Assembly: GCF_018069875.1 (NCBI RefSeq)
Contig: NZ_JAGQDF010000003.1
Location: 372,001 to 436,000 of the forward strand
Direction of reading: 5' to 3'
Length of the DNA stretch: 64,000 nt
Source: Ideonella alba
GTDB lineage: Bacteria; Pseudomonadota; Gammaproteobacteria; Burkholderiales; Burkholderiaceae_C
Position numbers and translations under genes: made by a program. Below are positions 5,255 through 36,111 of this stretch, piece by piece; within the stretch, counting starts at the first letter, position 1, and every line of letters begins with the position of its first letter. The notes beneath the pieces were generated by a model, which saw only the letters and a list, made by a program, of their open reading frames with translations, did no database searches and had not been told where the DNA came from.

Positions 5255-5336
5255 GGCGGCGGGCAGCGGGGGTGCGGTGGGCGATTGATTCTAGGCAGAT
5301 GGGGCCCGCCGGGGGGATTTCCAGCCACCCGGTCCC

Positions 5337-5363
5337 AAAAAGTGGCCGCACCCCGGCGGTGCG
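5337..5363 (-). terminator. Possible rho-independent terminator after the sulfotransferase operon
   Basis: On the minus strand a CGCACC/GGTGCG stem (5358–5363 with 5347–5352, five-base loop) is followed within six bases by a run of five T (5337–5341). It lies 46 bases past the stop of the last gene of the nine-gene minus-strand operon. The stem is short, so this is a moderate call. Confidence 0.4.
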
Positions 5364-5408
5364 CCCGGGGAAGACGCCGCCCGCCGAACCAGCAGGCGCC
5401 GTGCCGCC

Positions 5409-6170
5409 TCAGGTGCGGGCGCGCAGCCGGGCCAGGGCCTGTTCGTGCAGGCGCAGGTCGTCGGCGTTGTGGGTCAGCAAGGCGGTGTAGCAGGCCTCGC
5501 CCACCTCGGCGCGCAGGCGCTCGAGGCGTTCCTCCAGCGGCGCGCTGGTGTCGCGGCTGACGTTGGCATGCACGCTGCGGGCGACGAACTCGGGCAGATC
5601 CTGCTGCACCAGCGACTGCAGCAGCGCCATCGAGCGGTCGAACTCCTCGACCACCCCCACGAAAGGCAGGGTCTCCACCGCCCGGCTGGCGCGCTCGAAT
5701 TCGGTGCCCTCGGCCGGCGGGAACATCGGCGCGAAGCGGCTGACGTGGAAGTTGCGGCACTGCCGGTCGCGCCCCATCGACAGGCGCACCTCGATGTAGC
5801 CGGCCAGCGTGGTGTGGCGGGCCAGCACGCTGCCAAAGCCGTCACCGCCCTGCTTGCGCTCGAAGGCGTAGGCCGAGGCGATGCGGTCGATCGGGTGGCG
5901 GATGAAGATCACCGGCAGGATGTCGACCTGACCCATGTCGGGCGGCGGCAGCTCGACGGTGTGCGACGAGAAGGCCACCGCCTCGGGGTGCTCGCGGATC
6001 CATTCGGCCACTTCGCGCCGGTGCGGCGCAGGGTTGGCGCGGGCCGCGAATTCGCGCGTCACCCAGCGGCTGCCGAAGCAGGCCCGCAGCAGTTCATCCA
6101 CCGAGGTGCCGGCGTTCTTGAACAGGTGGTGGTGCAGGATGACCTTGCGGCGCGGGCGGGGTGGCGTCAT
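5409..6170 (-). CDS. Sulfotransferase-family protein (Sulfotransfer_2 type)
   Basis: The 253-residue protein opens with KVILHHHLFKNAGTSVDELL, where KNAGTS is the 5'-phosphosulfate-binding loop of PAPS-dependent sulfotransferases. Further on, VIFIRHPIDRIASAYAFER matches the 3'-phosphate-binding signature (R, then S eight residues later). Such enzymes move sulfate from PAPS to a hydroxyl group, here most plausibly on a glycan, given the glycosyltransferase immediately upstream. It is the last gene of the nine-gene operon and overlaps the preceding gene by four bases (ATGA). No PAPS-making cys genes are in the window. Family is clear; substrate is inferred from context. Confidence 0.82.
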   Translation of the reverse strand: MTPPRPRRKVILHHHLFKNAGTSVDELLRACFGSRWVTREFAARANPAPHRREVAEWIREHPEAVAFSSHTVELPPPDMGQVDILPVIFIRHPIDRIASAYAFERKQGGDGFGSVLARHTTLAGYIEVRLSMGRDRQCRNFHVSRFAPMFPPAEGTEFERASRAVETLPFVGVVEEFDRSMALLQSLVQQDLPEFVARSVHANVSRDTSAPLEERLERLRAEVGEACYTALLTHNADDLRLHEQALARLRART

Positions 6171-8818
6171 GCGGTGCTGGCCGGGCTGGCGTCGATGGCC
6201 GCGGCGATCGCGGCATCCACCACCTCGGCGGAACAGTGGTCGGCGATCATCGCCAGGCCGGCCTGGGCCAGGCGCTCGGCCAGCGCGCGGTCGGCGTGCA
6301 GGGCCAGGATCTTCGCGGCGAAGGCGGCCGGGTCCTCGGCGACCAGTTCACCCAGCGGCCCGTTCACGGGAATGCCCTCGGCGGCGCAGGGCGTCATCAC
6401 GCAGGGCAGGCCGGCGGCCAGCGCCTCCAGCACCTTGCCCTTGACCCCGGCGCCGTAGCGCAGCGGCGCCACGCTGAGCAGGCTGCGCTCATAGACCTCA
6501 TGCACGTCGGGCACGTAGCCCAGCGCACGCACGCGGGCGCTGCCCAGGCGGCGCACCTCGTCGGTCATGTAGCTGCCCACCAGCGTGACGGTGATGTCCG
6601 GGGCGGTCTGCCAGACCAGCGGCATGATCTGCTCGACCAGCCAGCGCGCGGCGTCGACATTGGGCGTGTGGCGGAAGCCGCCGACGAAGACCACGCCCTG
6701 GCGCTGGCGGGCCTCGGTCTTGACCGGGCGCAGCGCATAGGTCCAGGGCACGACGTGCACGCGCGAGCGCGGCGTGGCCTCGGCCAGCAGGGCCTGCTCG
6801 ACGCTGGAGTGCACGATGGTGGCGTCCACCGACTGGATCACCGACAACTCGACCTGGCGCACCTCGGCGGCACGCTGGGCCAGCGCGGCGTTGTCGGTGT
6901 GACGGGCCTCGCGCTCCATGCGCAGGTGGTGCAGGTCGGCCACGTTGTAGAGGATGCGCGCCTGCGGCTGGTGGCGGCGCAGCATGCCGGCGTACTTGGT
7001 GCCGTTGGTGAAGCGGTGCAGGTAGACCACGTCGATCGACCACGGGCACTTGCGCAGGTACTCCTCCACGCTCCAGTAGAACGGGTGGTAGATGCATTCC
7101 ACGCCCAGGGCCTGCAGCGCCTCGGTGTAGGGGCTGATCCGGGCCATGTTGTCGGCCGGGATGAAGGTGACCTTGTAGCCCAGCCGGATCAGCGAGCGGA
7201 TGTGCTGCATCGCGGCGTTGCTGCCGGCGTCCTGGTCGGGCGTGGGCACCACGTCGTCGATGAACAGGGCCCGCTTGGTCACGCCGCGCTCGGCCTCCAG
7301 ATCGGGCTGACCGGTGTTGAAGCTGTGGCGACCCAGCACGTCCTTCCAGCGCTCGTAGAACTTGCGGTGGTTGACGGCCTGGTACTGCTTCATGCCGCTG
7401 CCGGTGACGCTGGTGCCGCTGGTCACGCCCTCCAGGTGCACCACCACCGACTGCGGCTGCACCACCACCCGCCAGCCCGCCTGGCGCACGCGGAAGCACA
7501 GGTCGGTGTCCTCGTAATAGGCGGGGGCGAAGTGCAGGTCGAAGCCACCCAGTTCATCGAACAGGGCCTTGCGGATCATCAGCGCGGCGCCGGAGACATA
7601 GTCGACATCGCGCAGGTGGCTGTAGCGCGGCTCGGCCGGGTTGCCGTGGCGGCCCCAGTTCCAGGCGTCACCCATGCGCCAGACGATGCCGCCCACCTCC
7701 TGCAGCGAGCCGTCGCCGAACAGCAGCTTGGAGCCGGCCACGCCCACGCGCGGCACCTGCTCGAAGGTCTTGACCAGCTCGTCCACCCAGCCCGGACGCA
7801 CCAGGGTGTCGTTGTTCAGGAAGAACAGGTACTCGCCGCGCGCCAGCGAGGCGCCGCGGTTGCAGCTCTTGACGAAGCCCAGGTTGACGTCATTACGCAC
7901 CACCCGCACCGTGCCGCCGAAGACCAGCGGCGCCAGCAGGGTCTCGTCGGCCGAGCAGTCATCGACCAGGATCAGCTCGATCGGTGCCTCGGGCAGCGCC
8001 TTGGCGATCGCGTCGATGCAGTCGTAGGTCAGCTGGAACTTGCCATACACCGGGATCACCACCGACACCAGCGGCGCCTCGGCCAGCGGCAGGCGCAGCG
8101 GGCGGTAGCGGGTGGACAGCGCCACACTGGCGCCCTGCACCCATTGCGCCGGCGTGGCGGCGTCGATCAGCTCGCTCAGTGGGCCCAGGTCGGGCAGGGC
8201 CGGCGCGGCGGTGAGCTCGGCGCGGCGGCGCATCAGCAGGCCCAGCTGGTCCACCAGGAAGGCCAGCGGCGGGTCCAGGTCGGCGGCGCGGCGCGCGGTG
8301 TCGGCCTGGTTGCGGCACAGCATGGCCAGGTGGCGCTGCGCGGCCAGGTCCAGGCCGCCGTCCTCGCGCACCAGCTCGCGCGGCGAGCCCATCAGATCGA
8401 CGCCATCGCGCAGCCGGCGCACGGTGATGCGGTGGCGCGAGCGCGGCAGCAGCGAGGGGCTGAAGCTCAGCACGAAGCCGCAGTAGCCGTTGCCCAGGCC
8501 AGCGTCGCGCACATCGGGGCGGAACAGGTTGGCCTCGATCGTGGCCAGGCGCTCGCCGCCGTCCAGGATCTCCACGATCGCCGGCTGGTCGGGCGTCTCG
8601 GGGTCCCAGGCCCAGCCCGAGATCTGGGTGGCCGAGACCTCGTCGACGTGGCCGCTGCCGAAGCGGGCCACCAGCTCGTGCGCGGAGGGTGTGCTCATGG
8701 AGGAGATTGTCTGCGCAGCGCCAGGGGCCGAAGGCGCCACAGGTGCCGGGCCGCTGCGGCGCTGCCGGAACCAGGCGCCCCAGCCGTCGGGTGCGGGGGG
8801 AGGGGAAGGCGCGGTCAT
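6167..8818 (-). CDS. Two-module glycosyltransferase (beta-sandwich + GT2 + GT4)
   Basis: This 883-residue protein has three parts. Residues about 60–150 form a small beta-rich domain (ISGWAWDPETPDQPAIVEI, then RPDVRDAGLGNGYCGFVLS) of a kind found at the front of other polysaccharide glycosyltransferases. Residues about 250–480 are a GT-A/GT2 catalytic domain with VSVVIPVYG and the metal-binding FLNNDT. Residues about 540–870 are a GT-B/GT4-like domain with GVVFVGGFRHTPNVDAARWL and a C-terminal sugar-nucleotide site (YGAGVKGKVLEALAAGLPCV). One chain could therefore add two different sugars. The ORF start at 8818 is used; an internal ATG at 8698 (MSTPSAHEL) is a real alternative. No strong ribosome-binding site decides between them. 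It overlaps the downstream sulfotransferase by four bases. Confidence 0.85.
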   Translation of the reverse strand: MTAPSPPPAPDGWGAWFRQRRSGPAPVAPSAPGAAQTISSMSTPSAHELVARFGSGHVDEVSATQISGWAWDPETPDQPAIVEILDGGERLATIEANLFRPDVRDAGLGNGYCGFVLSFSPSLLPRSRHRITVRRLRDGVDLMGSPRELVREDGGLDLAAQRHLAMLCRNQADTARRAADLDPPLAFLVDQLGLLMRRRAELTAAPALPDLGPLSELIDAATPAQWVQGASVALSTRYRPLRLPLAEAPLVSVVIPVYGKFQLTYDCIDAIAKALPEAPIELILVDDCSADETLLAPLVFGGTVRVVRNDVNLGFVKSCNRGASLARGEYLFFLNNDTLVRPGWVDELVKTFEQVPRVGVAGSKLLFGDGSLQEVGGIVWRMGDAWNWGRHGNPAEPRYSHLRDVDYVSGAALMIRKALFDELGGFDLHFAPAYYEDTDLCFRVRQAGWRVVVQPQSVVVHLEGVTSGTSVTGSGMKQYQAVNHRKFYERWKDVLGRHSFNTGQPDLEAERGVTKRALFIDDVVPTPDQDAGSNAAMQHIRSLIRLGYKVTFIPADNMARISPYTEALQALGVECIYHPFYWSVEEYLRKCPWSIDVVYLHRFTNGTKYAGMLRRHQPQARILYNVADLHHLRMEREARHTDNAALAQRAAEVRQVELSVIQSVDATIVHSSVEQALLAEATPRSRVHVVPWTYALRPVKTEARQRQGVVFVGGFRHTPNVDAARWLVEQIMPLVWQTAPDITVTLVGSYMTDEVRRLGSARVRALGYVPDVHEVYERSLLSVAPLRYGAGVKGKVLEALAAGLPCVMTPCAAEGIPVNGPLGELVAEDPAAFAAKILALHADRALAERLAQAGLAMIADHCSAEVVDAAIAAAIDASPASTA

Positions 8819-8840
8819 CGCGGCGGCGATCGGGGCCGGT

Positions 8841-9965
8841 TCAGTCGCCCCGTTGGGCCGCGCGCTTCTCGCGGCGCTCGGCCTTCTCGGGGTCTTCCAC
8901 CGCGAAGTGGCGTCGGGTCTGGCGCAGGATGGCCGCGTCCTCGGCCTGGGCGGCCACCTGCAGCTTCTCGGTCATGGCGGCGCCGATGTCGGCCGACTGC
9001 GCCGGCACGCCCAGCACATCCACCGCCCAGCGCCGGGTTTCCTCGTCCAGGTCCAGCACCTGCCGCAGCTCGGTCAGACCATCCGGCGCCGGCTTGCGGT
9101 TCAGATGGCCCAGCGGGCAGCCCAGGCGCGATTCCATCCAGGCGATGTCCCCGGCGGTGCCGCTGGCGGCCTCGAGCAGCAGCTCGTTGCTCAGGCGCAG
9201 CTTGGGGCCGGGCAGCTGCGAGGCCAGGCGGGTGATCCAGCGCGTGGCCTTCAGGTCGCGGCTGTGGGTGCGGCTGGCCAGCTGGTGGTTGAAGTTGGCG
9301 ATCACGGTCACGCCGCGGCGCGACAGGCCCTCGTTCTTGCGCACGATCGAGGATTCGGGCAGGTCCAGCCCGGTGGTGGCGATGAAGTCGCTGACCACGT
9401 CGCCGTTGCGCAGCTTGGCGCTGTTGAAGTGGCGGTAGATGACCTTGTCGGCGCCGAAGACCTCTTCCACCTCGCTGAACCAGGCCTGGTAGGGCGGGCT
9501 CATGCGCGCCAGCTTGACGAAGTCGACCGAGCGCTTCTTCAGCTGTTCCTGGAACAGGCTCTCGATGTAGCCGTAGGGCTCGCGGACGTAGAGCACCACC
9601 TGCATCTCGTCGACCTTGCGCGCGAACCAGTCGCGCATCATGGTCAGGCTGGCGGTGCCGAAGGCCGAGCCGATCATCTCGGAGGAGATCACGAAGATCG
9701 ATTTCGGGCGTTCGAGGAATTTCTCGATCCGGTCGCCGAAGTTGTGCAGGCCCGCGACGCGACCCTTGCCCTTCTCGTGGACGTTGCCGGTGAAGCTGGC
9801 GTCGAACATCGAGCGCAGGTAGTAGCCCGAGTTGCCGTTCTCTCGGTAGAGGAACTGGTAGTTCGGCGTGGTCGGCGTCTCGCTGAGCGTCACCTGGATC
9901 GAGGTGCTGCCCGTCTTCTGCATGCCGCCGTGGATGAACAGGGTCTTGCGCGGGGAAGAGGTCAT
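8841..9965 (-). CDS. Sulfotransferase-fold protein
   Basis: The 374-residue product begins MTSSPRKTLFIHGGMQKTGS, then TSIQ. KTGSTSIQ is the 5'-PAPS loop, and VVLYVREPYGYIESLFQEQL near residue 140 carries the R…S 3'-phosphate motif. The frame could extend upstream to 10037, but the ATG at 9965 fits the homologous neighbours and avoids overlapping the previous gene. It shares the KTGST-x-IQ loop with the two genes directly upstream in the operon but lacks their C-terminal beta-sandwich. Its long basic, charged C-terminal tail (RRHFAVEDPEKAERREKRAA) is unusual. Probably a glycan sulfotransferase; substrate unknown. Confidence 0.78.
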   Translation of the reverse strand: MTSSPRKTLFIHGGMQKTGSTSIQVTLSETPTTPNYQFLYRENGNSGYYLRSMFDASFTGNVHEKGKGRVAGLHNFGDRIEKFLERPKSIFVISSEMIGSAFGTASLTMMRDWFARKVDEMQVVLYVREPYGYIESLFQEQLKKRSVDFVKLARMSPPYQAWFSEVEEVFGADKVIYRHFNSAKLRNGDVVSDFIATTGLDLPESSIVRKNEGLSRRGVTVIANFNHQLASRTHSRDLKATRWITRLASQLPGPKLRLSNELLLEAASGTAGDIAWMESRLGCPLGHLNRKPAPDGLTELRQVLDLDEETRRWAVDVLGVPAQSADIGAAMTEKLQVAAQAEDAAILRQTRRHFAVEDPEKAERREKRAAQRGD

Positions 9966-9979
9966 GGCGTGTTCGCAGT

Positions 9980-11365
9980 CTAGGTCACGTGCACCGGACA
10001 CTCGAGCGGGGTGAAGCCCTTCTGCTCGAACCAGCACCAGCCCTCCTGCAGGCCGGTGACCTGCAGGATGTAGCGTCCGGGCTCGGCGGGCGCCAGCACC
10101 TCAATCTCGGCCGGGACCCGCTGCCCGGGGGCCAGGACCTGCACCGGCAGCGGCGTGCGTCGGCCCTCGAAATGGGCCATCTGGCGGTCTTCGTGGAGCC
10201 AGTGGTAGCACAGGCGCAGCGGCAGCTCGGGCGTGCCGCGCCACCAGTGGCAGCTCTGCTGCTGCAGCGTCAGCGGCAGGCGCACCGTCTCGGAGGCCCG
10301 CATCGTCGTCGGCGCCGTGTCCCAGACCAGGTGGCCCTGGGCGCATTCCAGGCGCTGCGGGCCCAGCGAGGCTTCCATGTAGAGCAGCGCAGCCTCGTTG
10401 GCGAAGCGGGTGGCGTCGGCGTCCTGGTCGTCGTCGGCGCGCAGGAAGCGCTCGGGCGCCTCGTCGAACTCGATGCCGAACTCCCGGCGCAGCACCTCGG
10501 CATGGGGCTGGAACTCGGTCTGGATGAGCTCGATCTGCTCGGCGCTGAGCTTGATCGGCGCGCCGGTGATGCGGTTGAGCTGGCTGCCGTGGCGGTTGTT
10601 GAAGTCGGCCTGCGACAGGCGGATGTCCAGCGCCGCCAGGTGCTCGCGCAACGCCATGCCGAAGGCCAGGCCGCGCGCACTGAGGCTCTCGTTGGCGCTG
10701 CGCTGCAGCTTGGACAGCGCGCGCGCCTGTTCCAGGTCCAGGCCCAGGGCGCTGAAGAAGTCGATCACCACATCGCCTTCGGTCAGGGCCTGGCGGGTGA
10801 ACACCCGCACCTCCAGGGCGTTGCGGCCGAAGGCCGAAGCCAGGCGCTTGAAGCGCTCCTTGAAGCGGTAGACCGGGCGTTCCTCGTCGGGCGCCCAGGC
10901 CGGGCGGCCCATCTTGACGCGCTGACTCATCGCGCTGACCGCATAGGACAGCGGTGGCCGCACGTAGAGCAGCACCTTGACCCGCTCGGCGAAGTTCTCG
11001 CAATGGGTGCGCAGCGCGATCAGGTCGGGCAGGTTCAGGCTGATGAAGCCCTCGTACGAGAACAGCAGCTGACGGGCCCGCGGCTGGGCCCGGATCCAGG
11101 CGCTCTGCTCCTGCAGGTAGCGCCTGTCCGCGGCGCGGATCGCGGTCTCGTCGGTGCGGCCGTTCTCGACGTTGAGGACATAGCGCGCCGGGTGGCTGGA
11201 GAAGCACGAGCCCAGCTGGGCGTGCCAGCTGCCCGGCGGGTAGACGATCGAGCAACGCGATGCCAACTCGGCCCGAGCCTGGTCGCACACATCCTGGATG
11301 GCGGTGGAGCCGGTCTTGTCGAGGCCGAAGTGCAGGATCGCGGTGTCGAAAGGCTTGTCGGTCAT
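9980..11365 (-). CDS. Sulfotransferase-like protein with C-terminal beta-sandwich (paralogue A)
   Basis: The 461-residue protein has an N-terminal sulfotransferase-like domain (FDTAILHFGLDKTGSTAIQD; 3'-phosphate motif VLLYVRPPLSYAVSAMSQRV near residue 130). A roughly 125-residue C-terminal domain follows, of the form L-Y-H-W … RRTPLPVQVLAPGQ … APAEPGRYILQVTGLQEGWCWFEQKGF. This looks like an immunoglobulin-like sandwich and may bind carbohydrate (inference). It is plainly a paralogue of the next gene upstream: both have D-KTGST-x-IQ, Y-x-V-S-A-M, SLSARGLAFG/MTSRAMMFG and the same tail domain. The product is soluble with no signal peptide. It is the sixth gene of the operon, separated from its neighbours by 14 and 31 bases. 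Confidence 0.75.
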   Translation of the reverse strand: MTDKPFDTAILHFGLDKTGSTAIQDVCDQARAELASRCSIVYPPGSWHAQLGSCFSSHPARYVLNVENGRTDETAIRAADRRYLQEQSAWIRAQPRARQLLFSYEGFISLNLPDLIALRTHCENFAERVKVLLYVRPPLSYAVSAMSQRVKMGRPAWAPDEERPVYRFKERFKRLASAFGRNALEVRVFTRQALTEGDVVIDFFSALGLDLEQARALSKLQRSANESLSARGLAFGMALREHLAALDIRLSQADFNNRHGSQLNRITGAPIKLSAEQIELIQTEFQPHAEVLRREFGIEFDEAPERFLRADDDQDADATRFANEAALLYMEASLGPQRLECAQGHLVWDTAPTTMRASETVRLPLTLQQQSCHWWRGTPELPLRLCYHWLHEDRQMAHFEGRRTPLPVQVLAPGQRVPAEIEVLAPAEPGRYILQVTGLQEGWCWFEQKGFTPLECPVHVT

Positions 11366-11396
11366 CAGTCGAAGTCTGCCTCAAAGGCAGCGTGCG

Positions 11397-12761
11397 TCAC
11401 GCCACGCTGAGTTTGGCCGAGAATTTCGTGAAACCCTTCTGGTCCAGCCAGGCGTGCTGCTCCTGCACCACGCTGATCTCCATGGTGTAGTCGCCCGGGG
11501 CCTTGGGCGCCTTCACCTTGAGTTCCAGCTTGCACTTGTCGCGCGCGCGCAGCCGGGCGTGGGGCAGCGCGGTGCGGCCACCGCCGCCGATCAGCTTGCC
11601 GTCGGCACCGCGGTAGCGGTAGCCGATGTTGATCGGGTTGGGATTGGTCGACTGCCACAGCACGCTGGACTCGTTGAACAGCGTGACGCCCAGCTTCAGC
11701 TCGGCCCCGGCCTTCATCTGCGCGGGCAGGTTGTCGACCTCGATGTGGCCGAAGGCGTTCTCGAGCAGGCACTGCTTGAGCACCATGCCGGTGACGACGC
11801 CGGCGATGTCGCGCAGGATCTCCTCGGAGGCGGTGTCGGCCGGCGCGATGTACTTCTCGGGCGGGTCCTTGAAGACGATGCCGAACTCGCTGCGCAGGTA
11901 GTCCAGGCCGGTGCGGCTGGTCTGGGCGACCACCTCGGCCTGTTCCGGCGTCAGCTTGATCGAGGGGCCGGGCAGGTCGGCGATCAGGCCGCCGTACTTG
12001 CGCTGGTACTCGGCCGACGGCAGCTTGATGCCGGCGTCCAGCAGCGCCTTGGCGAAGGCGCCACCGAACATCATGGCCCGCGAGGTCATGCGCTGGTTGG
12101 CGCGCTCAGGCGTGACGTAGTCCGGCGAATCGATGATGTCCGCGGCGCCGACGATGTGCAGGAAGTCGATCACCGCGTCCTTGCCGGTCAGCTGGTCGGA
12201 CTCGAAGGAGCGCACCATCACCGAATCACGTCCGAAGAGCTTGACCAGGCGGCCGATCTTCTCGGGGAAGTTGTGGATCGGGATGCGGCCGTTGGGGCAG
12301 GGCTCCTTGCCCATGCGCACGTTCTGGCCCATGGCGCTGACCGCGTAGGAATGCGGCTCGCGCACGTACATCACCGCGATCACCGAGTCGGCGTAGCGGC
12401 GCGCCCACTTGTACATGCCCTCCAGCGCCTCGTCCGGCAGGTGCATGAAGCCTTCGTAGGAGGCCACCAGGGTCTCGCAGTTCTGCGCCGACTTGATGAA
12501 GTCCTCGACCTCGACCAGGTACTGCTTGTCGCGGGCCTGGATCTTGGCGCGGTCGGCGATGCCGACATTGCGGTTGAAGACGTAGCTTTCAGGTTCGGCG
12601 CAGAAGGCCGAGCCGAGCATCGGGTGCACATCGCCAGGCAGGTAGGCCGCCAGACCGCGGCTGCGCAGCGGCTCGCGCATGGTGCCGAAGGCCTTCTGGA
12701 TCGAGGTGCTGCCGGTCTTGTCTGTCCCAACGTGAATGATGACTTGTTTGAACTGCTTCAT
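11397..12761 (-). CDS. Sulfotransferase-like protein with C-terminal beta-sandwich (paralogue B)
   Basis: The 454-residue protein is homologous over its full length to the following gene. The PAPS-binding loop is TDKTGSTSIQKAF at residues about 13–25, and the 3'-phosphate motif VMYVREPHSYAVSAMGQNV is near residue 130. The C-terminal sandwich includes GYRYRGADGKLIGGGGRTAL and KAPGDYTMEISVVQEQHAWL. The gene starts with ATG inside an ATGA overlap with the preceding gene, which suggests translational coupling. Tandem duplication followed by divergence is the simplest origin of the pair. Sulfate transfer is inferred from the motifs. The catalytic base cannot be confirmed by eye, so a non-catalytic role is possible. 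Confidence 0.75.
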   Translation of the reverse strand: MKQFKQVIIHVGTDKTGSTSIQKAFGTMREPLRSRGLAAYLPGDVHPMLGSAFCAEPESYVFNRNVGIADRAKIQARDKQYLVEVEDFIKSAQNCETLVASYEGFMHLPDEALEGMYKWARRYADSVIAVMYVREPHSYAVSAMGQNVRMGKEPCPNGRIPIHNFPEKIGRLVKLFGRDSVMVRSFESDQLTGKDAVIDFLHIVGAADIIDSPDYVTPERANQRMTSRAMMFGGAFAKALLDAGIKLPSAEYQRKYGGLIADLPGPSIKLTPEQAEVVAQTSRTGLDYLRSEFGIVFKDPPEKYIAPADTASEEILRDIAGVVTGMVLKQCLLENAFGHIEVDNLPAQMKAGAELKLGVTLFNESSVLWQSTNPNPINIGYRYRGADGKLIGGGGRTALPHARLRARDKCKLELKVKAPKAPGDYTMEISVVQEQHAWLDQKGFTKFSAKLSVA

Positions 12762-13801
12762 GGAGAACTCCTGGGGGGTTCAGGGGTGCCGAGCGTGCCT
12801 TGTGGGCTGCTCTGCAACTGCGACTCAACGAGAACGAAACCAAGGCTGCGCGCATCCCCGTTGCGGGTCGGGAAGGCGGGCAGTTCCAGCTCCACGTGGT
12901 AGCGGGCCGGTGCGTTCATGGTGAACACGACTTCGAACATATCGCCGTCGTATTGCACCTGGGTGTCGCTGGTGTCGGTGCGGATGCGCAAGGCATGCAG
13001 CGCGCCGCTGATGCCCTCGCGCCAGCCTTTCAGGCGCAGACAGGCACCAGGCCGCTGGGTGGTGCAGCGCAGACGCAGCGTGCTGCTGATCCAGTCGTCG
13101 TCGTAGCGATGGCCGTCGTGGATGTGCACCGCGGCACCGAGCGCTTCATCGCTCAGCATCAGGCGGCTCGGGTCGGGGTCGCCCAGGTCGAGCTGCTGCG
13201 GCGGCGCCTGCACGCGCAGGATGTGGATCACGTCCTCGAGCAGGCGCGGCAGGTTGGCGTCGGACAGCAGCGAGTAGCGCGGCCGCATGGCCTTGAGCTT
13301 GTCGCTGAACTCCTGGGCACCCAGGATGCCGCTGCGCACGCCGTTGAGGCGGTCGATGTGGGGCGCGTGGTGGCGCGCGAACTCCTCCAGGTCACCGCCT
13401 GAGGGCATGCGCGAGAGCAGCGTCAGGTAGGCATACACCGCCATCCGGTCGGCGTCCTTGAGCAGCAGCGGCACATGCGCGTCCAGGCGCTCCAGCGCGG
13501 GCAGCAGCAGGTCTTCACGGATCTGCGTGCGAAAGCGCTGGTCGGCCGCATCCCAGGTGGCGCGCAGCGCCGCCAGCGGCAGGTCCAGCAGCGTGAAGGC
13601 CACGAAGGCCAGCGGCATGTCCTGGCTCAGCGGCCAGCGCAGCTGGTACAGGCCACCGGCATCAGGCGCGGCCGGTCGCAGCACCTGCACCGGGTCACCG
13701 CGGAACCAGACGATGACCAGTGGGTGCAGGCCATGCGACCCCAGGCTGCCGCACTCGATGTGGCAGTGGTCAGCCTCGACACGGACCAGCAGGGAGCTCA
13801 T
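12758..13801 (-). CDS. Uncharacterised protein of the sulfotransferase operon
   Basis: The 347-residue soluble protein is not recognised. The first 100 residues are beta-rich (LLVRVEADHCHIECG, PLVIVWFRG). The middle is helical (about 105–215, including MAVYAYLTLLSRMPSGGDLEEF and YSLLSDANLPRLLEDVIHIL). The last 110 residues look beta-rich again (WISSTLRLRCT, ARYHVELELPAFP). It has no signal peptide, no membrane segment and no obvious catalytic motif. It overlaps its neighbours by four bases on both sides (ATGA), so it is almost certainly made together with the GT4 enzyme before it and the sulfotransferase-like protein after it. An adaptor or carbohydrate-binding role is speculation. Confidence 0.65.
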   Translation of the reverse strand: MSSLLVRVEADHCHIECGSLGSHGLHPLVIVWFRGDPVQVLRPAAPDAGGLYQLRWPLSQDMPLAFVAFTLLDLPLAALRATWDAADQRFRTQIREDLLLPALERLDAHVPLLLKDADRMAVYAYLTLLSRMPSGGDLEEFARHHAPHIDRLNGVRSGILGAQEFSDKLKAMRPRYSLLSDANLPRLLEDVIHILRVQAPPQQLDLGDPDPSRLMLSDEALGAAVHIHDGHRYDDDWISSTLRLRCTTQRPGACLRLKGWREGISGALHALRIRTDTSDTQVQYDGDMFEVVFTMNAPARYHVELELPAFPTRNGDARSLGFVLVESQLQSSPQGTLGTPEPPRSSP

Positions 13802-14874
13802 CGCAGCAGCGCCGACTTGACGGTCTCATAGGAGCTGTCCCAGTGGCTTTCGGCGATCGCCTGGCCACGCGTGTCCGCCGCGTTGGCGGTGAAGCGGGCC
13901 GCCAGGGCCTCGAACTGGCGGCCGAAATCGCCGCGCTTGAAGGGAGAGAAGTAATGCACGTGACTGGGCGCCACCTCGGGGATGGAGCTGGATCGGGTGG
14001 TCAGCACCGGCGCGCCGCAGACGAAGGCCTCGCGCACCGGCATGCCGTAGCCCTCGAAGACCGACGGGTAGATCAGCAGGTGCGAGCGGCGGATCAGGTC
14101 GAGCTTGGCTTCTTCCGAGATGTAGCCCGGGAACTGGATCGTGCCGGCCTCGACCTGCGGCTCCAGGCCCAGGCGCTCGATCAGGCGGTGCATGGACTCG
14201 CCCCAGCCGAACTTGCCCGGCAGGATGAAGGCGAAGCGCGAGGCGAAGGTGGGGCTCTCGGCGATGTACTCCAGCACCTGGCGGATGTTCTTGCGCGGCT
14301 CCAGCGTGCCCAGCACGGTGACGATCGGCCGCTCGTCATGGAACGAGGGCATCGAGAAATCGGCCACCACCGCCCCGGGGTTGCAGATCACCCGGCGCTT
14401 CTTCATGGACTGCGGGAAGTACAGCTCCAGGTCGCGCAGCGTGGCCTGCGAGACGGCGAAGATCACGTCCGAGGTCTCGATGTCGCGCGCCACCGTCGTG
14501 CGGTGGTGGCGGATGGTCTCCTTGGAGTGGAACTGCGGCGTGGTGACCGTGCTCAGGTCGTGGACGATGAAGCCCTCGGTGCTGAAGACGCCGCGGATCG
14601 ACTTGTAGTTCGGGAAGAAGCCGATGCTGCCCGGTGCCGGGGCGATCTGGCGCAGTGGCATGCGGGCCATGTCGGCCAGGCGGGCGCCGCTGGCGTCGTC
14701 GATGGCCAGGCGGACGAAGGACTGCGGGATCTCGTGCCAGTTGATGAAGAACCGGGTCTCCAGCGTGTCGGCGTCGGCCAGGAAACGGCGCGCCAGTTCC
14801 TTGGCGACGTTGGGGATGCCGCTGAAGTTTCGCTCGAAGAGCGGCGACACCTCGAAATACACGACGGGTTTCAT
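13798..14874 (-). CDS. GT4-family glycosyltransferase
   Basis: This 358-residue GT-B enzyme begins MKPVVYFEVSPLFERNFSGI, the usual acceptor-side opening of GT4 enzymes. Donor-domain marks near residue 200 onward are PIVTVLGTLEPRKNIRQVLEY, FPGYISEEAKLDLIRRSHLL and PSVFEGYGMPVREAFVCGAP, with the conserved E-x-F-G/Y-x-P-x-x-E pattern. It would add a sugar from a nucleotide donor to a lipid-linked or growing glycan on the cytosolic side. The frame extends to 14907, but the ATG at 14874 overlaps the stop of the preceding gene by ATGA, the rule in this operon, so it is preferred. Donor and acceptor are unknown. Confidence 0.85.
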   Translation of the reverse strand: MKPVVYFEVSPLFERNFSGIPNVAKELARRFLADADTLETRFFINWHEIPQSFVRLAIDDASGARLADMARMPLRQIAPAPGSIGFFPNYKSIRGVFSTEGFIVHDLSTVTTPQFHSKETIRHHRTTVARDIETSDVIFAVSQATLRDLELYFPQSMKKRRVICNPGAVVADFSMPSFHDERPIVTVLGTLEPRKNIRQVLEYIAESPTFASRFAFILPGKFGWGESMHRLIERLGLEPQVEAGTIQFPGYISEEAKLDLIRRSHLLIYPSVFEGYGMPVREAFVCGAPVLTTRSSSIPEVAPSHVHYFSPFKRGDFGRQFEALAARFTANAADTRGQAIAESHWDSSYETVKSALLR

Positions 14875-15845
14875 GCGAGCAACTGGTCCAGGCGAAGGCG
14901 GCGCCACAGCGGCTGGCGATCGGGCTCGTAGGTGCCGTCGAAGTCCTGCGTGGCGACCCGCAGGCCGATCAGCTGGGACAAGGCGTTCTCGAACAGGTGG
15001 CGGCTGCGGTAGCCGGTGCTGAACAGCTCGAAGTCCAGGTCGCGCAGCGCGGCCATCAGGCCAAGCTCGATGTCGATGGTCTGCAGCAGCACCACGCCGC
15101 TGTGCCGTTGCGCCAGGCGCTCCAGCGCCTCGGCCACTGGGTCGTCGTGGCCGTCCTCGGTGCTGAAGACGATCATCAGGTTCAGCACCACGTCCAGGCG
15201 ACGGGCGGCCAGGTCCAGCGCAAAACCCAGGCGGGTGATCTCGTCCAGGTCAGGCTGGACCACCAGCAGGTTGCGCGCGCGGATCTCGTCGGAGCGCTGC
15301 TGCAGCAGCCGGATGTGCAGCTTGGACATCGCCAGCTTGTGCTTGATCGGCAGCCGCACATGGCTGGGATCCAGCGGAAACACGGGCGGCGTGGGGCAAT
15401 GCTGCACGAAGCGCTGCAGCAGGTCGTCGCCGGCCAGGTTGGCGGTGGGCAGGCTGGCGCCCAGCGCGTGGTCGCCCACGTAGTCGCCCTGGATGTCGAC
15501 GTAGTAGCCGATATCGGCGCCCTTGAGGTAGCGGTGGTCCTCGGGGGCGCGCAGGCTGAAGAAGACGATGGGCGTGTCGTCGTCGACCTCGAACTCGGAC
15601 AGCAGCTCGGCGCGGCTGGCGAAGTACTCGGGCAGCGCCAGATGCGCCGCCTTGGGCAGGCCGTGGCGCTGGGCCGTTTCCACCAGGATGCGGGCCAGCG
15701 CGAAGGACAGGTCGGCCACCTCGTCGGCGGCCGGTCGCCGGCCGTAGACGTGCGAGGTGGCGAACAGCAGCAGCGGCGGGCGACCCGACGCCAGCCGGGC
15801 TTCGGCCGCCGGAGCCGGGGTCACCTGTACTGCCGAGGGGTTCAT
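14871..15845 (-). CDS. Uncharacterised protein of the sulfotransferase operon (second)
   Basis: The 324-residue soluble protein is not recognised. It shows alternating strands and helices (PPLLLFATSHVYGRRP, TPIVFFSLRAPEDHRYL, VVLNLMIVFSTEDGHDD, VVLLQTIDIELGLMAALRDL) that resemble a Rossmann-like or GT-B-like half fold. No nucleotide-binding signature can be identified with confidence. The segment YLKGADIGYYVDIQGDYVGDHALG is distinctive and could seed a search. It is the second gene of the operon, overlapping the HU-like gene before it and the GT4 gene after it by four bases each. That placement suggests work on the same glycan. No function is claimed. Confidence 0.65.
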   Translation of the reverse strand: MNPSAVQVTPAPAAEARLASGRPPLLLFATSHVYGRRPAADEVADLSFALARILVETAQRHGLPKAAHLALPEYFASRAELLSEFEVDDDTPIVFFSLRAPEDHRYLKGADIGYYVDIQGDYVGDHALGASLPTANLAGDDLLQRFVQHCPTPPVFPLDPSHVRLPIKHKLAMSKLHIRLLQQRSDEIRARNLLVVQPDLDEITRLGFALDLAARRLDVVLNLMIVFSTEDGHDDPVAEALERLAQRHSGVVLLQTIDIELGLMAALRDLDFELFSTGYRSRHLFENALSQLIGLRVATQDFDGTYEPDRQPLWRRLRLDQLLA

Positions 15846-16156
15846 TCGACCGACGAATCCTGCAGATCGGCGGCGCCGTCGTCGGCCTTGTCACCGGCCG
15901 GCTTGAGCTGCACGAAGACCGTGCGCATCACCGGCTTGCCGGCCGACGGGCCTTCCTTGGCGGTGACCGACTTCGAGCGGAACACGCCCAGGCGGGGAAT
16001 GCGGGTGTCGCCCTCGCCAGCGTCGCGGATCTCGGCAGTGATCACGCCGAAGGCGGTCTCCAGCGCCGCAGCCAGCGTGGCGTTGGGCAGCGCCCGGACG
16101 TCGGGACCGCCCTCGTCCTTGACGCGCTTCATGAAGTCAGAGAAGGTCATGTTCAT
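15842..16156 (-). CDS. HU/IHF-like DNA-binding protein heading the glycan operon
   Basis: The 104-residue protein has the HU/IHF plan. A helical N-terminus (MTFSDFMKRVKDEGGPDVRA, with ALPNATLAAALETAFGVITA) is followed by the strand–turn–strand RIPRLGVFRSKSVTAKEG, equivalent to the G-F-G-x-F-x-x-R segment of HU, and a beta arm (GKPVMRTVFVQLKPAG). The tail is acidic. HU-family proteins bend DNA, and this one could regulate its own operon or act elsewhere on the chromosome (inference). A GGGGGAGG ribosome-binding site lies upstream of the ATG at 16156; a second ATG six bases on is possible. It is the first gene of the nine-gene operon and overlaps the next gene by four bases. A second HU-like gene heads another sulfotransferase unit at 36,360. 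Confidence 0.7.
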   Translation of the reverse strand: MNMTFSDFMKRVKDEGGPDVRALPNATLAAALETAFGVITAEIRDAGEGDTRIPRLGVFRSKSVTAKEGPSAGKPVMRTVFVQLKPAGDKADDGAADLQDSSVE

Positions 16157-16159
16157 GGC

Positions 16160-16249
16160 TCAGGCCTCCCCCAGACCGGCGGCGCGGTGGCTGGCCGCGA
16201 GGGAGGCAGCCGGGCGAGTGCCCGACCGGAAAGCGAATTGCATCTGCAT
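16160..16249 (-). CDS. Possible 29-residue leader peptide ahead of the HU-like gene
   Basis: An ATG frame of 29 codons begins MQMQFAFRSGTRPA and ends with TGA three bases before the ATG of the HU-like gene. The putative product is short, basic and alanine-rich. Termination this close to the next start would suit translational coupling or a leader peptide. The 322-base interval from 16157 to the terminator at 16479 must also hold the operon promoter, which could not be placed by eye. The ribosome-binding site for this small frame is weak, so it may be chance. Confidence 0.3.
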   Translation of the reverse strand: MQMQFAFRSGTRPAASLAASHRAAGLGEA

Positions 16250-16478
16250 GGTGGCTACCTGAAGTTTGTAAGACCTGTGAGCATGCGCGAACGGCGCCAA
16301 ATCTGCCAGGGACGACTGCACGGATTGTCTTTGCTCTTTCGGTAGCCAGGCGCCGAACTATAGGCGTAGCGTTGATGTCACCCACCCCACTGATCGCGCG
16401 CTTGCGCAGCGCCGGAAATGTTGCTAGGCGCGGCTGAGCGGGCGTTTGGCCTGGGTGGCTCCTGAGGGTGAACGCAGG

Positions 16479-16510
16479 AAAAAAAACGGGGCCACGTCAC
16501 CGTGGCCCCG
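16479..16510 (-). terminator. Rho-independent terminator after amtB
   Basis: A perfect ten-base stem (CGGGGCCACG at 16487–16496, its complement at 16501–16510) with loop TCAC is followed on the minus strand by a run of eight T (16479–16486). It sits 64 bases past the amtB stop and ends the porin–glnK–amtB transcript. Confidence 0.93.
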
Positions 16511-28089: not shown

Positions 28090-28096
28090 GCGTCGG

Positions 28097-33284: not shown

Positions 33285-34544
33285 TCAGCGCGGCAGGCTG
33301 CTGATCTCCAGCAGCCGCAGCTGGCCACCGATCGCGGCGGTCTCGCGGCCGCCGCGGTTGTAGGCCTCCTGGCCGACGTTCACATCCAGCAGCACCCAGG
33401 CCTCGGGGCGGTTCCAGTCGGGGCCGAACTCGGCCTCCAGCTCCTCGGCGCGCAGGTTCTCGGGCGCGCGCCGCAGCTGACGCCCGACAATCACCCGCTG
33501 CGCCGCCAGCAGGTCGCGAAAGCGCACCCGCAGGTCGAACAGCCGATCGGCGAAGGGCTGGTGCTGTGACGCCGCGCCCTCCGAGCGGTACAGCGGCAGC
33601 TGGCTGCCGGCGTCCAGTGCCACGCGCCCCGCCTCGCCCACCGGACCGTGCACCACCGGCATCGCGCCCTGGGCCGGGTCACCCATCACCGAGGCCTGCT
33701 GGAACCAGGCCACGCGCGACCAGTCACTCACGCCGCTGCGGTAGACCGCGGTGTTGAACAGGTACTGGATCTGGCACAGGCGCCGCTGGCCGGGGCGGTT
33801 CTCGCGCAGGCAGCGCGGGTTGATGACGGTCATCCCCAGCTGCTGCTTGACCTGCACCTCGCCTTCGGGCGTGCGCGCCGAGCCGGCCTGCACCTGGGCC
33901 ACGCCCTGGCGCGAGCGCAGCTGCAGCGTCGATTCGGAGCCGCCGGCCCAGGGGCGGAACGGGTCCGGCCCGTTCCAGGCCTGGCGGAAGTGCACGAAGC
34001 TGCCCTGGATGTAGGCGTTCGCGCCGGTGCGACCCTGGCCGCCGGGGCCGTAGGCCTTGAAGCGGGTCTGCGGGCCGCTGGTGCTGTACAGCCCCAGGCC
34101 GCCCTCGTCGGGGTCGGTGTTGAGCTGCGCGAAGGCCAGCTCGCCCGGCGCGTCATCCGCCGCGCTGCCGCGGCACAGCCGCGGCTCAGGCGCCGGCGCC
34201 CAGCGGTGGCGCTGGCCCTGGCGGCCCGGCGGCAGGCCGGTCAGCTCTGCCAGCTGGCGCCAGCGGGCGCCGTCAAAGGATTCCTGCAGCGGCCCGCCCT
34301 GCGGCGCCTCGGTGCCACCGGGGCAGCCGTCCAGCTCACCGAAGAACATCAGCTTCAGGCCCGGGCGCAGGATCGCGTCGGTCGGACCGCCGTTCCACGA
34401 GCGCCAGACGTCCGAGGTGGCCAGCCGCTGGTAATTGCCCGGCCCGAACAGCTGCAGCGTGGCGCCGGGGCGCTCCTGCGCCGCAGCGGCGCCGCACAGC
34501 GCCAGGCTGACGGTCAGGGCCAGCGGGCGCCGGGTGGGGGTCAT
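33285..34544 (-). CDS. Secreted protein of unknown function (paralogue 2)
   Basis: The 419-residue protein has a signal peptide (LALTVSLALCGAAAAQ) without a clear lipobox. The mature part parallels the convergent lipoprotein: LKLMFFGELDGCPGG, HRWAPAPEPRLCRG, AYIQGSFVHFRQAWNGPDPF, QIQYLFNTAVYRSGVSDWSR and WFQQASVMGDPAQGAMPVVH. The order and spacing of these blocks agree, so the pair arose by duplication. The start at 34544 overlaps the stop of the sulfotransferase gene by ATGA. A longer in-frame reading to 35342 is the shadow of that gene. Its stop codon abuts that of paralogue 1 (TGA|TCA). Function unknown; it is the last gene of the second HU-headed operon. Confidence 0.75.
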   Translation of the reverse strand: MTPTRRPLALTVSLALCGAAAAQERPGATLQLFGPGNYQRLATSDVWRSWNGGPTDAILRPGLKLMFFGELDGCPGGTEAPQGGPLQESFDGARWRQLAELTGLPPGRQGQRHRWAPAPEPRLCRGSAADDAPGELAFAQLNTDPDEGGLGLYSTSGPQTRFKAYGPGGQGRTGANAYIQGSFVHFRQAWNGPDPFRPWAGGSESTLQLRSRQGVAQVQAGSARTPEGEVQVKQQLGMTVINPRCLRENRPGQRRLCQIQYLFNTAVYRSGVSDWSRVAWFQQASVMGDPAQGAMPVVHGPVGEAGRVALDAGSQLPLYRSEGAASQHQPFADRLFDLRVRFRDLLAAQRVIVGRQLRRAPENLRAEELEAEFGPDWNRPEAWVLLDVNVGQEAYNRGGRETAAIGGQLRLLEISSLPR

Positions 34545-35332
34545 GCGGCGGGGCCGCCCAGGCGCTGGCGGTAGAGCGCGTAGAGCTCGTTGTCCATCTC
34601 GCACCAGGAGGCGATGCAGGCCATGGTCTCGTCCGAGGCGCCCAGCTCGCGCAGGCGCTGCACGCGCGAGGCCACCGGCAGGCCGTCGTTGACGTTGTTG
34701 CGGAACTCGCGCTCGGGCACGCTGCGCCCGGGCATGGCCAGGTCGCGGATGGTCTGGAACACGGCGGGCATCTCGTCCACCGTGAACACCCGGTCCAATT
34801 CGGCCAGGTTGGCGCGGGCCATGTCCATCAGCTGGGTGCGGCTGATCAGGCCACGGTTCTGCAGCCCGATCAGGCCGGTGCGTCCGCGGTAGGTGCGGCC
34901 GGCGAAGTAGTAGGTGTAGAAGTTGTCGTAGTGGTCGTTCAGGAAGTTGCGCAGGTGCGGCGGCCCGGCGAGGAAGTACTCGTTGGGCGACATCTCGGCC
35001 GCGGCGCGCATGCCGGTGTGCTGCGGCTTGGCGCGTTCCTGCGGCGACAGCGCCTCGCCCTGCTTGCGCAGGAAGAAGTAGAACGACAGGATGCGCTCCA
35101 TCGGATCGCGCAGGATCGTGAAGCGGTAGCTGGGCCCCTTCAGGCAGTCCAGCAGGCACCAGTCGAAGTGGCCCGAGAACACCTGGTAGCGGTTCAGCTC
35201 GGCGATGCTCATCGGCCGCAGCTGGTCGTTGACGCGGGCCGGGCAGATCACCGAGGGCTCGAACGCCGCCTCCAGGGCGGCATGCACCGACTGGCCGGCG
35301 GTCTTGGGAATGTGGAGAAAGACGACGCGCAT
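34541..35332 (-). CDS. Sulfotransferase-family protein
   Basis: The 263-residue protein opens MRVVFLHIPKTAGQSVHAAL, where PKTAGQS is the PAPS-binding loop. It continues with the 3'-phosphate motif YRFTILRDPMERILSFYFF near residue 75. It looks like the Sulfotransfer_2 group that modifies polysaccharides. It lies 47 bases after the acetyltransferase gene and overlaps the secreted-protein gene by four bases, so sulfation and acetylation of the same glycan are plausible. Five sulfotransferase-fold genes occur in this window. Confidence 0.83.
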   Translation of the reverse strand: MRVVFLHIPKTAGQSVHAALEAAFEPSVICPARVNDQLRPMSIAELNRYQVFSGHFDWCLLDCLKGPSYRFTILRDPMERILSFYFFLRKQGEALSPQERAKPQHTGMRAAAEMSPNEYFLAGPPHLRNFLNDHYDNFYTYYFAGRTYRGRTGLIGLQNRGLISRTQLMDMARANLAELDRVFTVDEMPAVFQTIRDLAMPGRSVPEREFRNNVNDGLPVASRVQRLRELGASDETMACIASWCEMDNELYALYRQRLGGPAA

Positions 35333-35379: not shown

Positions 35380-36111
35380 TCAGGTCAGCGAGGACAGCTG
35401 GATCTTCTCGGGCTGGTAGGTCTGCTTGCCATCGGCACGCAGCTGTTCGACGAAGTCGAGGAAGGCCGGGAACTGGTCGACCGGCGCGCCCTTGAGGTCC
35501 CAGGGCGCGAACTCCCACCAGCGGCTGCGCAGCATGCGCTCGACCCGCTTGTCGCGGAAGCGGTACTTCTTGACCACCGCCGGGCTGCCGGCCACCACCG
35601 CGTAGGGCGGCACGTCCTTGGTGACCACCGACATCGCCGCGATCACCGCGCCGTCGCCGATCGTCACGCCCGGCAGGATGAAGGCACCGTGGCCGATCCA
35701 GACATCGTTGCCGATGGTGGTGAGCTTGGCGGTCACCGGCGGCGCGGTGCGCGGGAAGTCCTTGCCCGGCTGCATCGTGTGGCCGTCGGGCGGCGGCATG
35801 TCCAGCACGCTCTTGAAGTCCTGGTAGAAGAACGGCGAGGTGCTGAACCAGTGCATCGGGTGCGGATGGCGGCCGATCTGCACGTTCTCGCCGAAGGAGC
35901 AGTAGCGGCCGATGCGGCAACCGAAGTAAAAGCCGCTGACCGCGTAGCTGAAGGCGCCCAGGTGCAGCGAGTGCGCCACCTGCATCCACTTCAGGCTGCA
36001 GGGCGGCTCGAAGACCACGTTGTCCGGCAGCGTCGCGCCGGGGGACAGCAGGGTCGACACGCCGCGAGCGGCCATCTTGTCGATGAGTCCCGAGGTGAGT
36101 TTGATCGGCAT
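35380..36111 (-). CDS. Hexapeptide-repeat acetyltransferase (CatB/Vat-like)
   Basis: The 243-residue protein has left-handed-helix hexapeptide repeats ([14 protein letters not shown] near residue 68; [20 protein letters not shown], then [15 protein letters not shown] near 135–170). It carries the typical [17 protein letters not shown] block, and the long loop with [16 protein letters not shown] contains the catalytic-type histidine. Such trimeric enzymes move acetyl from acetyl-CoA to sugars or, in the xenobiotic branch, to antibiotics. Context beside a sulfotransferase favours a sugar. A small hairpin (36,130–36,146) and a palindrome array precede it. Confidence 0.85.

What the first reader, a model, noticed from the sequence alone, without database searches (positions are those of the whole stretch)
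5409..16249. Nine-gene operon headed by an HU-like protein, with four sulfotransferase-fold genes and two unknown proteins
The genes from 16156 down to 5409 overlap by four bases or lie within about 30 bases of each other and end at a likely terminator. The order is HU-like, unknown, GT4, unknown, three consecutive KTGST-x-IQ sulfotransferase-like proteins, a GT2+GT4 fusion, and a Sulfotransfer_2 protein. A chromosome-architecture protein as first gene of a glycan-sulfation operon does not match any system I know. Neither unknown protein is recognised. This is the best candidate in the window for an undescribed system.
Basis: partly seen in the sequence, partly recalled or inferred. Interest (0 to 1): 0.8.

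Follow-up and report, generated by a model that had tools for sequence, protein, structure and literature searches.

The report
Sulfotransferase operon with repurposed HU-like protein
This bacterium carries an inserted set of nine genes that probably builds and sulfates a surface sugar coat, led by a small relative of a DNA-packaging protein that, in related species, is repeatedly found beside or joined to sulfate-adding enzymes, so it probably serves those enzymes rather than the chromosome.

Summary
The nine-gene operon is real. It has five ATGA overlaps and gaps of 31, 14 and 22 bp, and Ideonella aquatica has all nine genes at 82-98% protein identity. It is an island of about 11 kb between the amtB terminator and the gshA promoter. 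In the 12 other Ideonella genomes where I read that junction, the two genes are 128-282 bp apart.

The main result is the HU-like gene. It belongs to a divergent HU/IHF-related family that I found, in the genomes sampled, only in Ideonella (18 copies in 12 of 16 genomes). None of 17 aligned domains has the RNPxTG DNA-binding arm. Of 18 copies, 14 have a sulfotransferase (ST) fused or within 1.5 kb, 2 head this operon and 2 have none. Five are single proteins: HU-like+Sulfotransfer_2 in four genomes, and ST+HU-like in one. I therefore read it as an accessory domain of glycan sulfotransferases, not a nucleoid protein. The operon probably extends and sulfates the polysaccharide exported by the KpsMTED system 11 kb away; a second HU-like gene and an ST lie beyond that.

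The two unknown proteins stay unresolved.

The parts
15842..16156 (-). HU-like protein (HU1), 104 aa, first gene
   Evidence: Pfam PF00216 E=0.013, below cut-off; family profile hits HU/IHF structures; orthologue in G014 86% identical
14871..15845 (-). Unknown protein P2, 324 aa
   Evidence: No Pfam/NCBIfam/PHROGs/PADLOC match; the one orthologue found is in I. aquatica, 93%; AF2 model poor, pLDDT 37.8
13798..14874 (-). GT4 glycosyltransferase, 358 aa from the ATG (369 from GTG 14907)
   Evidence: PF00534 E=1.6e-16; ATGA overlap with P2
12758..13801 (-). Unknown protein P4, 347 aa; poor model with beta-rich ends and a helical middle
   Evidence: No family; AF2 pLDDT 44.0; the one orthologue found is in G014, 86%
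11397..12761 (-). Sulfotransferase-like STa, 454 aa, DKTGSTSIQ and REPHSYAVSAM
   Evidence: No Pfam match; 34% identical to STb, 25% to STc; relatives at 32% identity or less in polysaccharide clusters on Rhodobacterales plasmids
9980..11365 (-). Sulfotransferase-like STb, 461 aa, DKTGSTAIQ
   Evidence: only a weak Ig-like C-terminal match in Pfam (PF16158 E=0.098)
8841..9965 (-). Sulfotransferase-like STc, 374 aa, QKTGSTSIQ
   Evidence: no sulfotransferase match in Pfam; 29% identical to the ST part of the G002 ST-HU fusion, E=5e-39
6167..8818 (-). GT2+GT4 fusion glycosyltransferase, 883 aa
   Evidence: PF00535 and PF13692; 69% identical homologue next but one to an HU-like gene in G012; the six plasmid relatives listed of 418 are 40-43% identical
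5409..6170 (-). Sulfotransfer_2-type sulfotransferase, 253 aa, last gene
   Evidence: PF03567 E=3.7e-4, 21.2 against cut-off 22 bits; 69% identical homologue, itself over the cut-off (22.7), next to an HU-like gene in G012
5329..16479 (.). Inserted segment of about 11.15 kb between the amtB terminator T-run and the gshA promoter region
   Evidence: Comparison with 12 Ideonella genomes lacking it
16160..16249 (-). 29-codon leader ORF just before HU1; same length but different sequence in G014
36360..36740 (-). Second HU-like protein (HU2), 126 aa, Lys/Ala-rich tail
   Evidence: same family in alignment A7
35380..36111 (-). Hexapeptide acyltransferase following HU2
   Evidence: PF00132 E=9.8e-17
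34541..35332 (-). Sulfotransfer_2 protein following the acyltransferase, 263 aa
   Evidence: PF03567 36.5 bits, over the cut-off of 22
36900..38021 (-). glf, UDP-galactopyranose mutase, directly before HU2
   Evidence: PF03275 E=3e-74
38159..39607 (-). manC-type mannose-1-phosphate guanylyltransferase/isomerase
   Evidence: PF00483, PF01050, PF22640
27274..31623 (+). KpsMTED-type polysaccharide export genes (four ORFs)
   Evidence: PF01061, PF00005 and PF02563/SLBB for three of the four; the KpsE label is by position only

Best explanation
The nine genes form one operon, probably gained by the common ancestor of two Ideonella species, that extends and sulfates a surface polysaccharide. The polysaccharide is most likely the one exported by the KpsMTED system 11 kb away. 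The GT4 and GT2+GT4 enzymes add sugars, and the four P-loop sulfotransferases transfer sulfate from PAPS. The HU-like protein is an accessory domain of the sulfotransferases: it works in cis where fused and in trans where it is a separate gene. The likeliest mode is that the HU fold, which pairs into dimers, holds sulfotransferases together or holds the anionic glycan chain for them. Shown: operon anatomy, island boundaries, recurrence next to and fused with sulfotransferases, and absence of the DNA-binding arm. Inferred: the reaction, the link to this exporter, and how the HU-like domain acts.
For: Operon structure and conservation in I. aquatica. Family assignments. HU-like copies in the genus: 18 in 12 of 16 genomes, after one chance row (G004) was dropped. 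ST fused or within 1.5 kb in 14 of 18, against 2 of 38 control loci, both of which are the gshA loci beside this very operon; the ST queries there came from the test loci, and leaving out those of the same genome 12 of 18 are still found. Fusions: HU-like+Sulfotransfer_2 in G001, G006, G012, G013, with PF03567 over the cut-off in the three scanned, G006, G012 and G013; ST+HU-like in G002, whose ST part has no Pfam match and is assigned by motif and by similarity to STc, E=5e-39. The free-standing neighbours over a Pfam cut-off belong to PF03567 (G000 HU2, G012:C11), PF09037 (G005, G008:C4) and PF00685 (G008:C4). In G012, at another place, homologues of this operon's last two genes (69% each) are followed by an HU-like gene. 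In G002 the ST-HU fusion lies on the same strand between manC (91%) and glf (92%). No RNPxTG in 17 of 17 domains, present in 3 of 3 canonical HU/IHF of this genome. Relatives of STa sit in exporter clusters on Phaeobacter and Rhodobacter plasmids. Precedent that an HU domain can bind a sulfated glycan: mycobacterial Hlp binds heparan sulfate through residues 31-60 and its Lys-rich tail (PMC2409343, abstract read).
Against: Two of 18 HU-like copies have no ST detected nearby: G015:C180 on a 10-kb contig, and G008:C2 with none in 19 kb. HU1 itself lies 3.1 kb from the nearest ST. The net charge of the domains is low (-1 to +3, against +5 to +14 for the canonical ones) and whole HU1 is acidic (pI 5.15), which speaks against simple electrostatic glycan binding. 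Within the operon, Sulfotransfer_2 is just under its cut-off and the three KTGST proteins have no sulfotransferase match. Of the partner STs elsewhere, those of G002, G010 (three proteins), G011 and the KTGTSSLQ proteins of G012 are under or without a Pfam threshold. No structure of the HU-like domain or of a complex was predicted (both jobs went to P2 and P4). PAPS supply and Kps linker genes were not looked for.
Confidence: 0.6

Rival explanations
1. The HU-like protein is a local DNA-binding regulator or nucleoid protein that controls expression of the glycan cluster.
For: Related to HU/IHF by profile (IHF E=2.1e-4, HU 2.6e-4 in PDB sequences; hhalign probability 84). Free-standing first gene. 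HU2 has a Lys/Ala-rich tail.
Against: The RNPxTG arm is missing in 17 of 17 domains. Fusion to enzymes in both orders is odd for a regulator. HU1 as a whole is acidic. Two conserved leader blocks were not found elsewhere in the window, and shared 12-14-mers were few and GC-rich.
Confidence: 0.17
2. The HU-like genes merely hitch-hike in variable glycan islands and have no functional tie to sulfotransferases.
For: The islands are variable, and two copies sit elsewhere (G015, G008:C2). In G015 the HU-like gene has the same glyoxalase-family neighbour as in G011 but no ST (PF13669 for the G011 gene).
Against: Two kinds of fusion. Several ST families are involved. STs are sparse in other fetched sequence: 3 in 254 kb of 16 loci, one of them a fusion.
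Confidence: 0.13
3. The sulfotransferases modify something other than the Kps-exported polysaccharide, for example lipopolysaccharide, a glycoprotein or a lipid.
For: The island is a separate operon on the other strand. A lower-GC region with what look like glycosyltransferase genes at about 54-62 kb may be a second glycan locus.
Against: Nearness to KpsMTED, glf and manC. G002, the closest of the 12 non-carriers by gshA (97%), has its ST-HU fusion between manC and glf. Exporter clusters with ST relatives on Rhodobacterales plasmids.
Confidence: 0.25

Closest known systems
Canonical HU/IHF (PF00216)
   Same: Core of two helices and strands with the LG.F turn; profile match to solved HU and IHF
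   Different: No RNPxTG arm; below Pfam cut-off; separate clade; fused or adjacent to sulfotransferases. The C-terminal helix also looks absent in the alignment (by eye)
Sulfated capsule cluster of Vibrio sp. KMM 8419 (PMC11641403, passages found by term)
   Same: Glycosyltransferases, KpsDMET-type export, sulfotransferases, acyltransferase
   Different: 'DNA-binding' does not occur in its main text; its PAPS genes lie in the cluster, whereas PAPS genes were not looked for here
Phaeobacter inhibens pPGA1_65 and Rhodobacter sp. CZR27 polysaccharide clusters
   Same: KTGST-type ST relative with ABC exporter and sugar transporter genes in both; glf, mannose-1-phosphate guanylyltransferase and sulfotransferase family 2 in pPGA1_65
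   Different: About 24-32% identity to STa; no HU-like gene annotated in the regions shown
Mycobacterial Hlp (PMC2409343, abstract read)
   Same: HU-type protein with a Lys-rich tail, like HU2, that binds a sulfated glycan
   Different: Described there as a histone-like adhesin; no sulfotransferase link mentioned in the abstract

Membership tests
HU/IHF DNA-binding proteins (PF00216) | Pfam gathering score 22.4 bits | tested here: not met
   HU1 16.2 bits, E=0.013; HU2 no match at E<=0.1
HU/IHF DNA-binding proteins (PF00216) | Sequence relationship to HU/IHF | tested here: met
   Profile of 17 domains: IHF 2.1e-4, HU 2.6e-4; hhalign probability 84
HU/IHF DNA-binding proteins (PF00216) | Beta-arm with RNPxTG (motif recalled as the DNA-binding arm) | tested here: not met
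   0 of 17 HU-like domains, 3 of 3 canonical ones in this genome
HU/IHF DNA-binding proteins (PF00216) | DNA binding | not testable with these tools
   Needs gel shift or ChIP
PAPS-dependent sulfotransferases | P-loop sulfate-donor motif and a second R..S motif | tested here: met
   STa, STb, STc: KTGST and a later R.P.....S stretch; ST2: FKNAGTS read (the pattern did not catch it) and RHPIDRIASAY; motif meaning recalled
PAPS-dependent sulfotransferases | Pfam sulfotransferase match above cut-off for the operon's four proteins | tested here: not met
   ST2 21.2 against 22 bits; STa, STb, STc no sulfotransferase match. The protein at 34541-35332 does meet it, 36.5 bits
ABC-transporter-dependent capsule system | KpsM, KpsT, KpsE, KpsD-type exporter nearby | tested here: met
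   27274-31623: ABC2_membrane, ABC_tran, Poly_export/SLBB; the KpsE-position ORF has no Pfam match
ABC-transporter-dependent capsule system | Exporter in the same operon as the nine genes | tested here: not met
   Exporter is 11 kb away on the other strand
ABC-transporter-dependent capsule system | KpsC/KpsS linker enzymes | not tested
   Not searched
Anti-phage defence systems | PADLOC profile match | tested here: not met
   0 of 9 proteins at E<=0.001

The most novel reading that the evidence does not exclude
In Ideonella the HU/IHF fold has been turned from a DNA-bending protein into a glycan-sulfotransferase module. It lost the DNA-gripping arm and became a mobile partner domain that joins unrelated sulfotransferase families, in cis on either end or in trans, to hold enzymes or the sulfated chain.
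Probability: 0.5. Interest if true: 0.75.

Novelty: new variant of a known kind. Interest (0 to 1): 0.6.

Why it matters
[quoted passage not shown] A small domain that travels with several sulfotransferase families would be a handle for finding sulfated-glycan clusters and perhaps for making these enzymes work together. It would also be a clear case of a nucleoid-protein fold leaving the nucleoid for carbohydrate chemistry, which can be tested directly on the natural fusion proteins.

Tried and rejected
Relatives of P2 and P4. Single-protein searches of 120 genomes found each in the window genome and G014 only. A two-row profile of P2 in 399 order-level genomes gave 12 further genomes at E 0.007-0.048, short partial matches that I treat as chance. 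A genome-contig scan with P2, which used two short peptide patterns, gave 1 locus, I. aquatica. Plasmids: none for P2 or P4. Structure models of both were poor (pLDDT 37.8 and 44.0), so no fold search was run. P2 as a Rossmann-like enzyme and P4 as a beta-sandwich protein are impressions only.

HU-like copies outside Ideonella. The first profile (4 rows) in 199 genomes gave 12 genomes: 9 Ideonella and three weak others. G084 and G192 are canonical HU with GRNPxTG; G093 was not examined. The 13-row profile in 399 order-level genomes gave two others, both canonical HU. The 17-row profile in 399 family-level genomes gave one other, G051, a 58-residue match that I read as chance opposite another gene. 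The samples overlap and include Ideonella. No plasmid match for one HU-like protein; the G013 fusion matched plasmids in its ST part only. Rows used to build a profile match it by construction. Copies found by a profile that did not contain them: G002, G005, G008:C2, G010 (two), G012 (three), G013 and G014 HU2 with the first profile, and G001, G006, G011, G008:C4 with the second.

Chance row dropped: G004 (E=0.039), a 36-residue match inside a long frame that looks like a methylmalonyl-CoA mutase gene.

Weak points in the count. The ST of G010:C774 and one of the two of G010:C578 have no sulfotransferase match in Pfam, the other is under the cut-off. The 38 control loci come partly from other genera, where detection by homology is less sensitive, and 15 of them are gshA loci.

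An error of mine, mended: the table of window genes used to label loci took the wrong strand for some genes (among them the GT2+GT4, Sulfotransfer_2, HU2, glf and manC genes), so some labels and strands printed there are of antisense frames. One search repeats the comparison with the right strands, and the identities given in this report come from it or from calls that named strands themselves (25, 39, 89, 96).

Defence, RNA-family and shared-promoter ideas gave nothing. Literature: no paper with 'HU family DNA-binding' + sulfotransferase + polysaccharide, 'DNA-binding protein HU' + sulfotransferase or Ideonella + exopolysaccharide + sulfotransferase. The 15 papers listed for 'HU-like domain' with two other terms do not hold that phrase. 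The 2017 paper on new HU/IHF clades (recalled) is not held, so it could not be checked for this family.
Full report
Observation. The families are as described: HU-like, unknown P2, GT4, unknown P4, three KTGST-type sulfotransferase-like proteins, a GT2+GT4 fusion and a Sulfotransfer_2-like protein. The last is just under Pfam's cut-off (21.2 against 22 bits) and the three KTGST proteins have no sulfotransferase match; they are assigned by motif and by mutual similarity (34% and about 25%). A weak terminator-like site follows the last gene, but such sites are not above chance in the region.

Island. The window lies in an Ideonella genome: the genome G014 of the same genus holds the same sequence as I. 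aquatica 4Y11 over the P2-P4 stretch. G014 carries the whole operon in the same place. dN/dS for the nine genes is 0.05-0.31, so all look to be under purifying selection, including HU1 (0.25), P2 (0.14) and P4 (0.28). P2 and P4 were not found in the other 14 of 16 genus genomes, two of which are under 90% complete. In the 12 genomes where I read amtB and gshA together they are 128-282 bp apart; of the other two, G008 gave no gshA match and G009 has the gene split over contig ends. The amtB terminator and the gshA promoter region are both kept on either side in the window, so about 11.15 kb was inserted between 16479 and 5329. G002, whose gshA protein is 97% identical to that of the window, lacks it. 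I did not test for target duplications or search for an integrase. The leader of about 320 bp has strongly conserved blocks in G014 and a 29-codon reading frame whose length but not sequence is kept.

Surroundings. Eleven kb away, on the plus strand, is a KpsMTED-type exporter (27274-31623), also present in G014 (86-98%) and at lower identity (47-77%) in G005. Beyond it, on the minus strand, lie manC, glf, a second HU-like gene (36360-36740), a hexapeptide acyltransferase and a Sulfotransfer_2 protein, in that order of transcription. A profile of the HU-like family found only these two copies in the whole genome. The three canonical HU/IHF genes are on other contigs.

The HU-like family. With a 13-row profile there were 19 rows in 13 of 16 Ideonella genomes; one row (G004, E=0.039) is a chance match, leaving 18 copies in 12 genomes. 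Their contexts are as follows. G000 and G014 HU1: head of this operon. G000 and G014 HU2: HU-like, acyltransferase, Sulfotransfer_2. G005: HU-like, acyltransferase, Stf0 sulfotransferase. G010:C578: two KTGTSSIQ proteins, then HU-like. G010:C774: KTAGTS protein, then HU-like cut by the contig end. G012:C16: fusion HU-like+Sulfotransfer_2, a free HU-like gene, then a KTGTSSLQ protein. G012:C11: homologues of this operon's last two genes (69% each), then HU-like. G001, G006, G013: fusion HU-like+Sulfotransfer_2. G002: KTGSSSIQ sulfotransferase fused to a C-terminal HU-like domain, between manC and glf with glycosyltransferases, another KTGTSSIQ protein and an acyltransferase. G011: KTGTSSLQ protein overlapping HU-like. 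G008:C4: HU-like among sulfotransferases of several families. G015:C180 and G008:C2: no sulfotransferase detected.

Is that more than chance? Within 1.5 kb, 14 of 18 HU-like loci have a sulfotransferase, against 2 of 38 control loci, both of them the gshA loci beside this same operon. The queries came from the test loci; leaving out those of the same genome, 12 of 18 are still found. Among 16 other fetched loci (254 kb, three of them holding an HU-like gene) there were 3, one being a fusion. Orthologues inflate the 18: counting HU1, HU2 and the HU-like+Sulfotransfer_2 fusion once each leaves about 12 loci, about 10 with a sulfotransferase (my grouping, by eye). The fusions, in both orders and with two kinds of sulfotransferase, are the strongest evidence of a functional tie; for the G002 fusion the sulfotransferase part rests on motif and similarity to STc (E=5e-39), not on Pfam.

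What the HU-like domain is. The family profile finds IHF and HU among solved structures (best E=2.1e-4 and 2.6e-4) and aligns with this genome's canonical HU/IHF over 56 columns. That alignment stops before the DNA-binding arm: RNPxTG is absent in 17 of 17 and present in 3 of 3 canonical proteins. A tree separates the 17 from 6 canonical proteins with 100/100 support. Outside Ideonella only canonical HU or chance matches were seen in samples of 199, 399 and 399 genomes, with one weak match (G093) not examined.

How it most likely works. The glycosyltransferases extend a polysaccharide and the sulfotransferases decorate it; the HU-like protein supports the sulfotransferases. Two modes fit: a dimerising scaffold, or a chain-holding module. 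The second has a precedent in mycobacterial Hlp, whose HU domain and Lys-rich tail bind heparan sulfate (PMC2409343, abstract). HU2 has a similar tail, but HU1 is acidic overall (pI 5.15) and the domains carry little net charge, so for HU1 the scaffold is the better guess. None of this is shown biochemically.

Known systems. Sulfated capsules with KpsDMET export and sulfotransferases are known, for example in Vibrio sp. KMM 8419 (PMC11641403, passages). KTGST-type relatives occur in exporter clusters on Rhodobacterales plasmids, and the GT2+GT4 protein has relatives on 418 plasmid records. The operon is thus a variant of a known kind. The tie between an HU-derived domain and sulfotransferases is the new part; the paper searches I ran found no description of it, and one relevant recalled paper was not available.

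Noticed in passing
window 54000-62000: GC falls from about 70% to 49-55%, with what look by eye like glycosyltransferase genes: a possible recently acquired surface-glycan island.
   Followed up: no
window 31890-34540: Two related secreted proteins of unknown function, 464 aa on the plus strand and one of about 417 aa on the minus strand (33285 to about 34540), beside the exporter; relatives beside kpsD in G005 and in G014.
   Followed up: partly
window 21863-23041: Weak match to sialyltransferase family GT29 (PF00777 E=2e-4, under cut-off) beside the capsule locus.
   Followed up: no
window 6167-8818 N-terminus; L061:1728-2558; L067:10215-12740; L114:4385-6949: A domain of about 100 residues (ISGWAWDP...RPDV) recurs in proteins of Ideonella glycan clusters (tblastn with the window protein, 27-69% identity); it has no Pfam name in the window protein.
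   Followed up: partly
L113:2715-3505 and L010:7510-8337: Same glyoxalase-family gene beside the HU-like gene in G011 and G015, with a sulfotransferase only in G011: a possible before/after pair for gain or loss of the partner.
   Followed up: partly
window 16160-16249: 29-codon frame directly before the HU-like gene, same length but different sequence in G014.
   Followed up: partly
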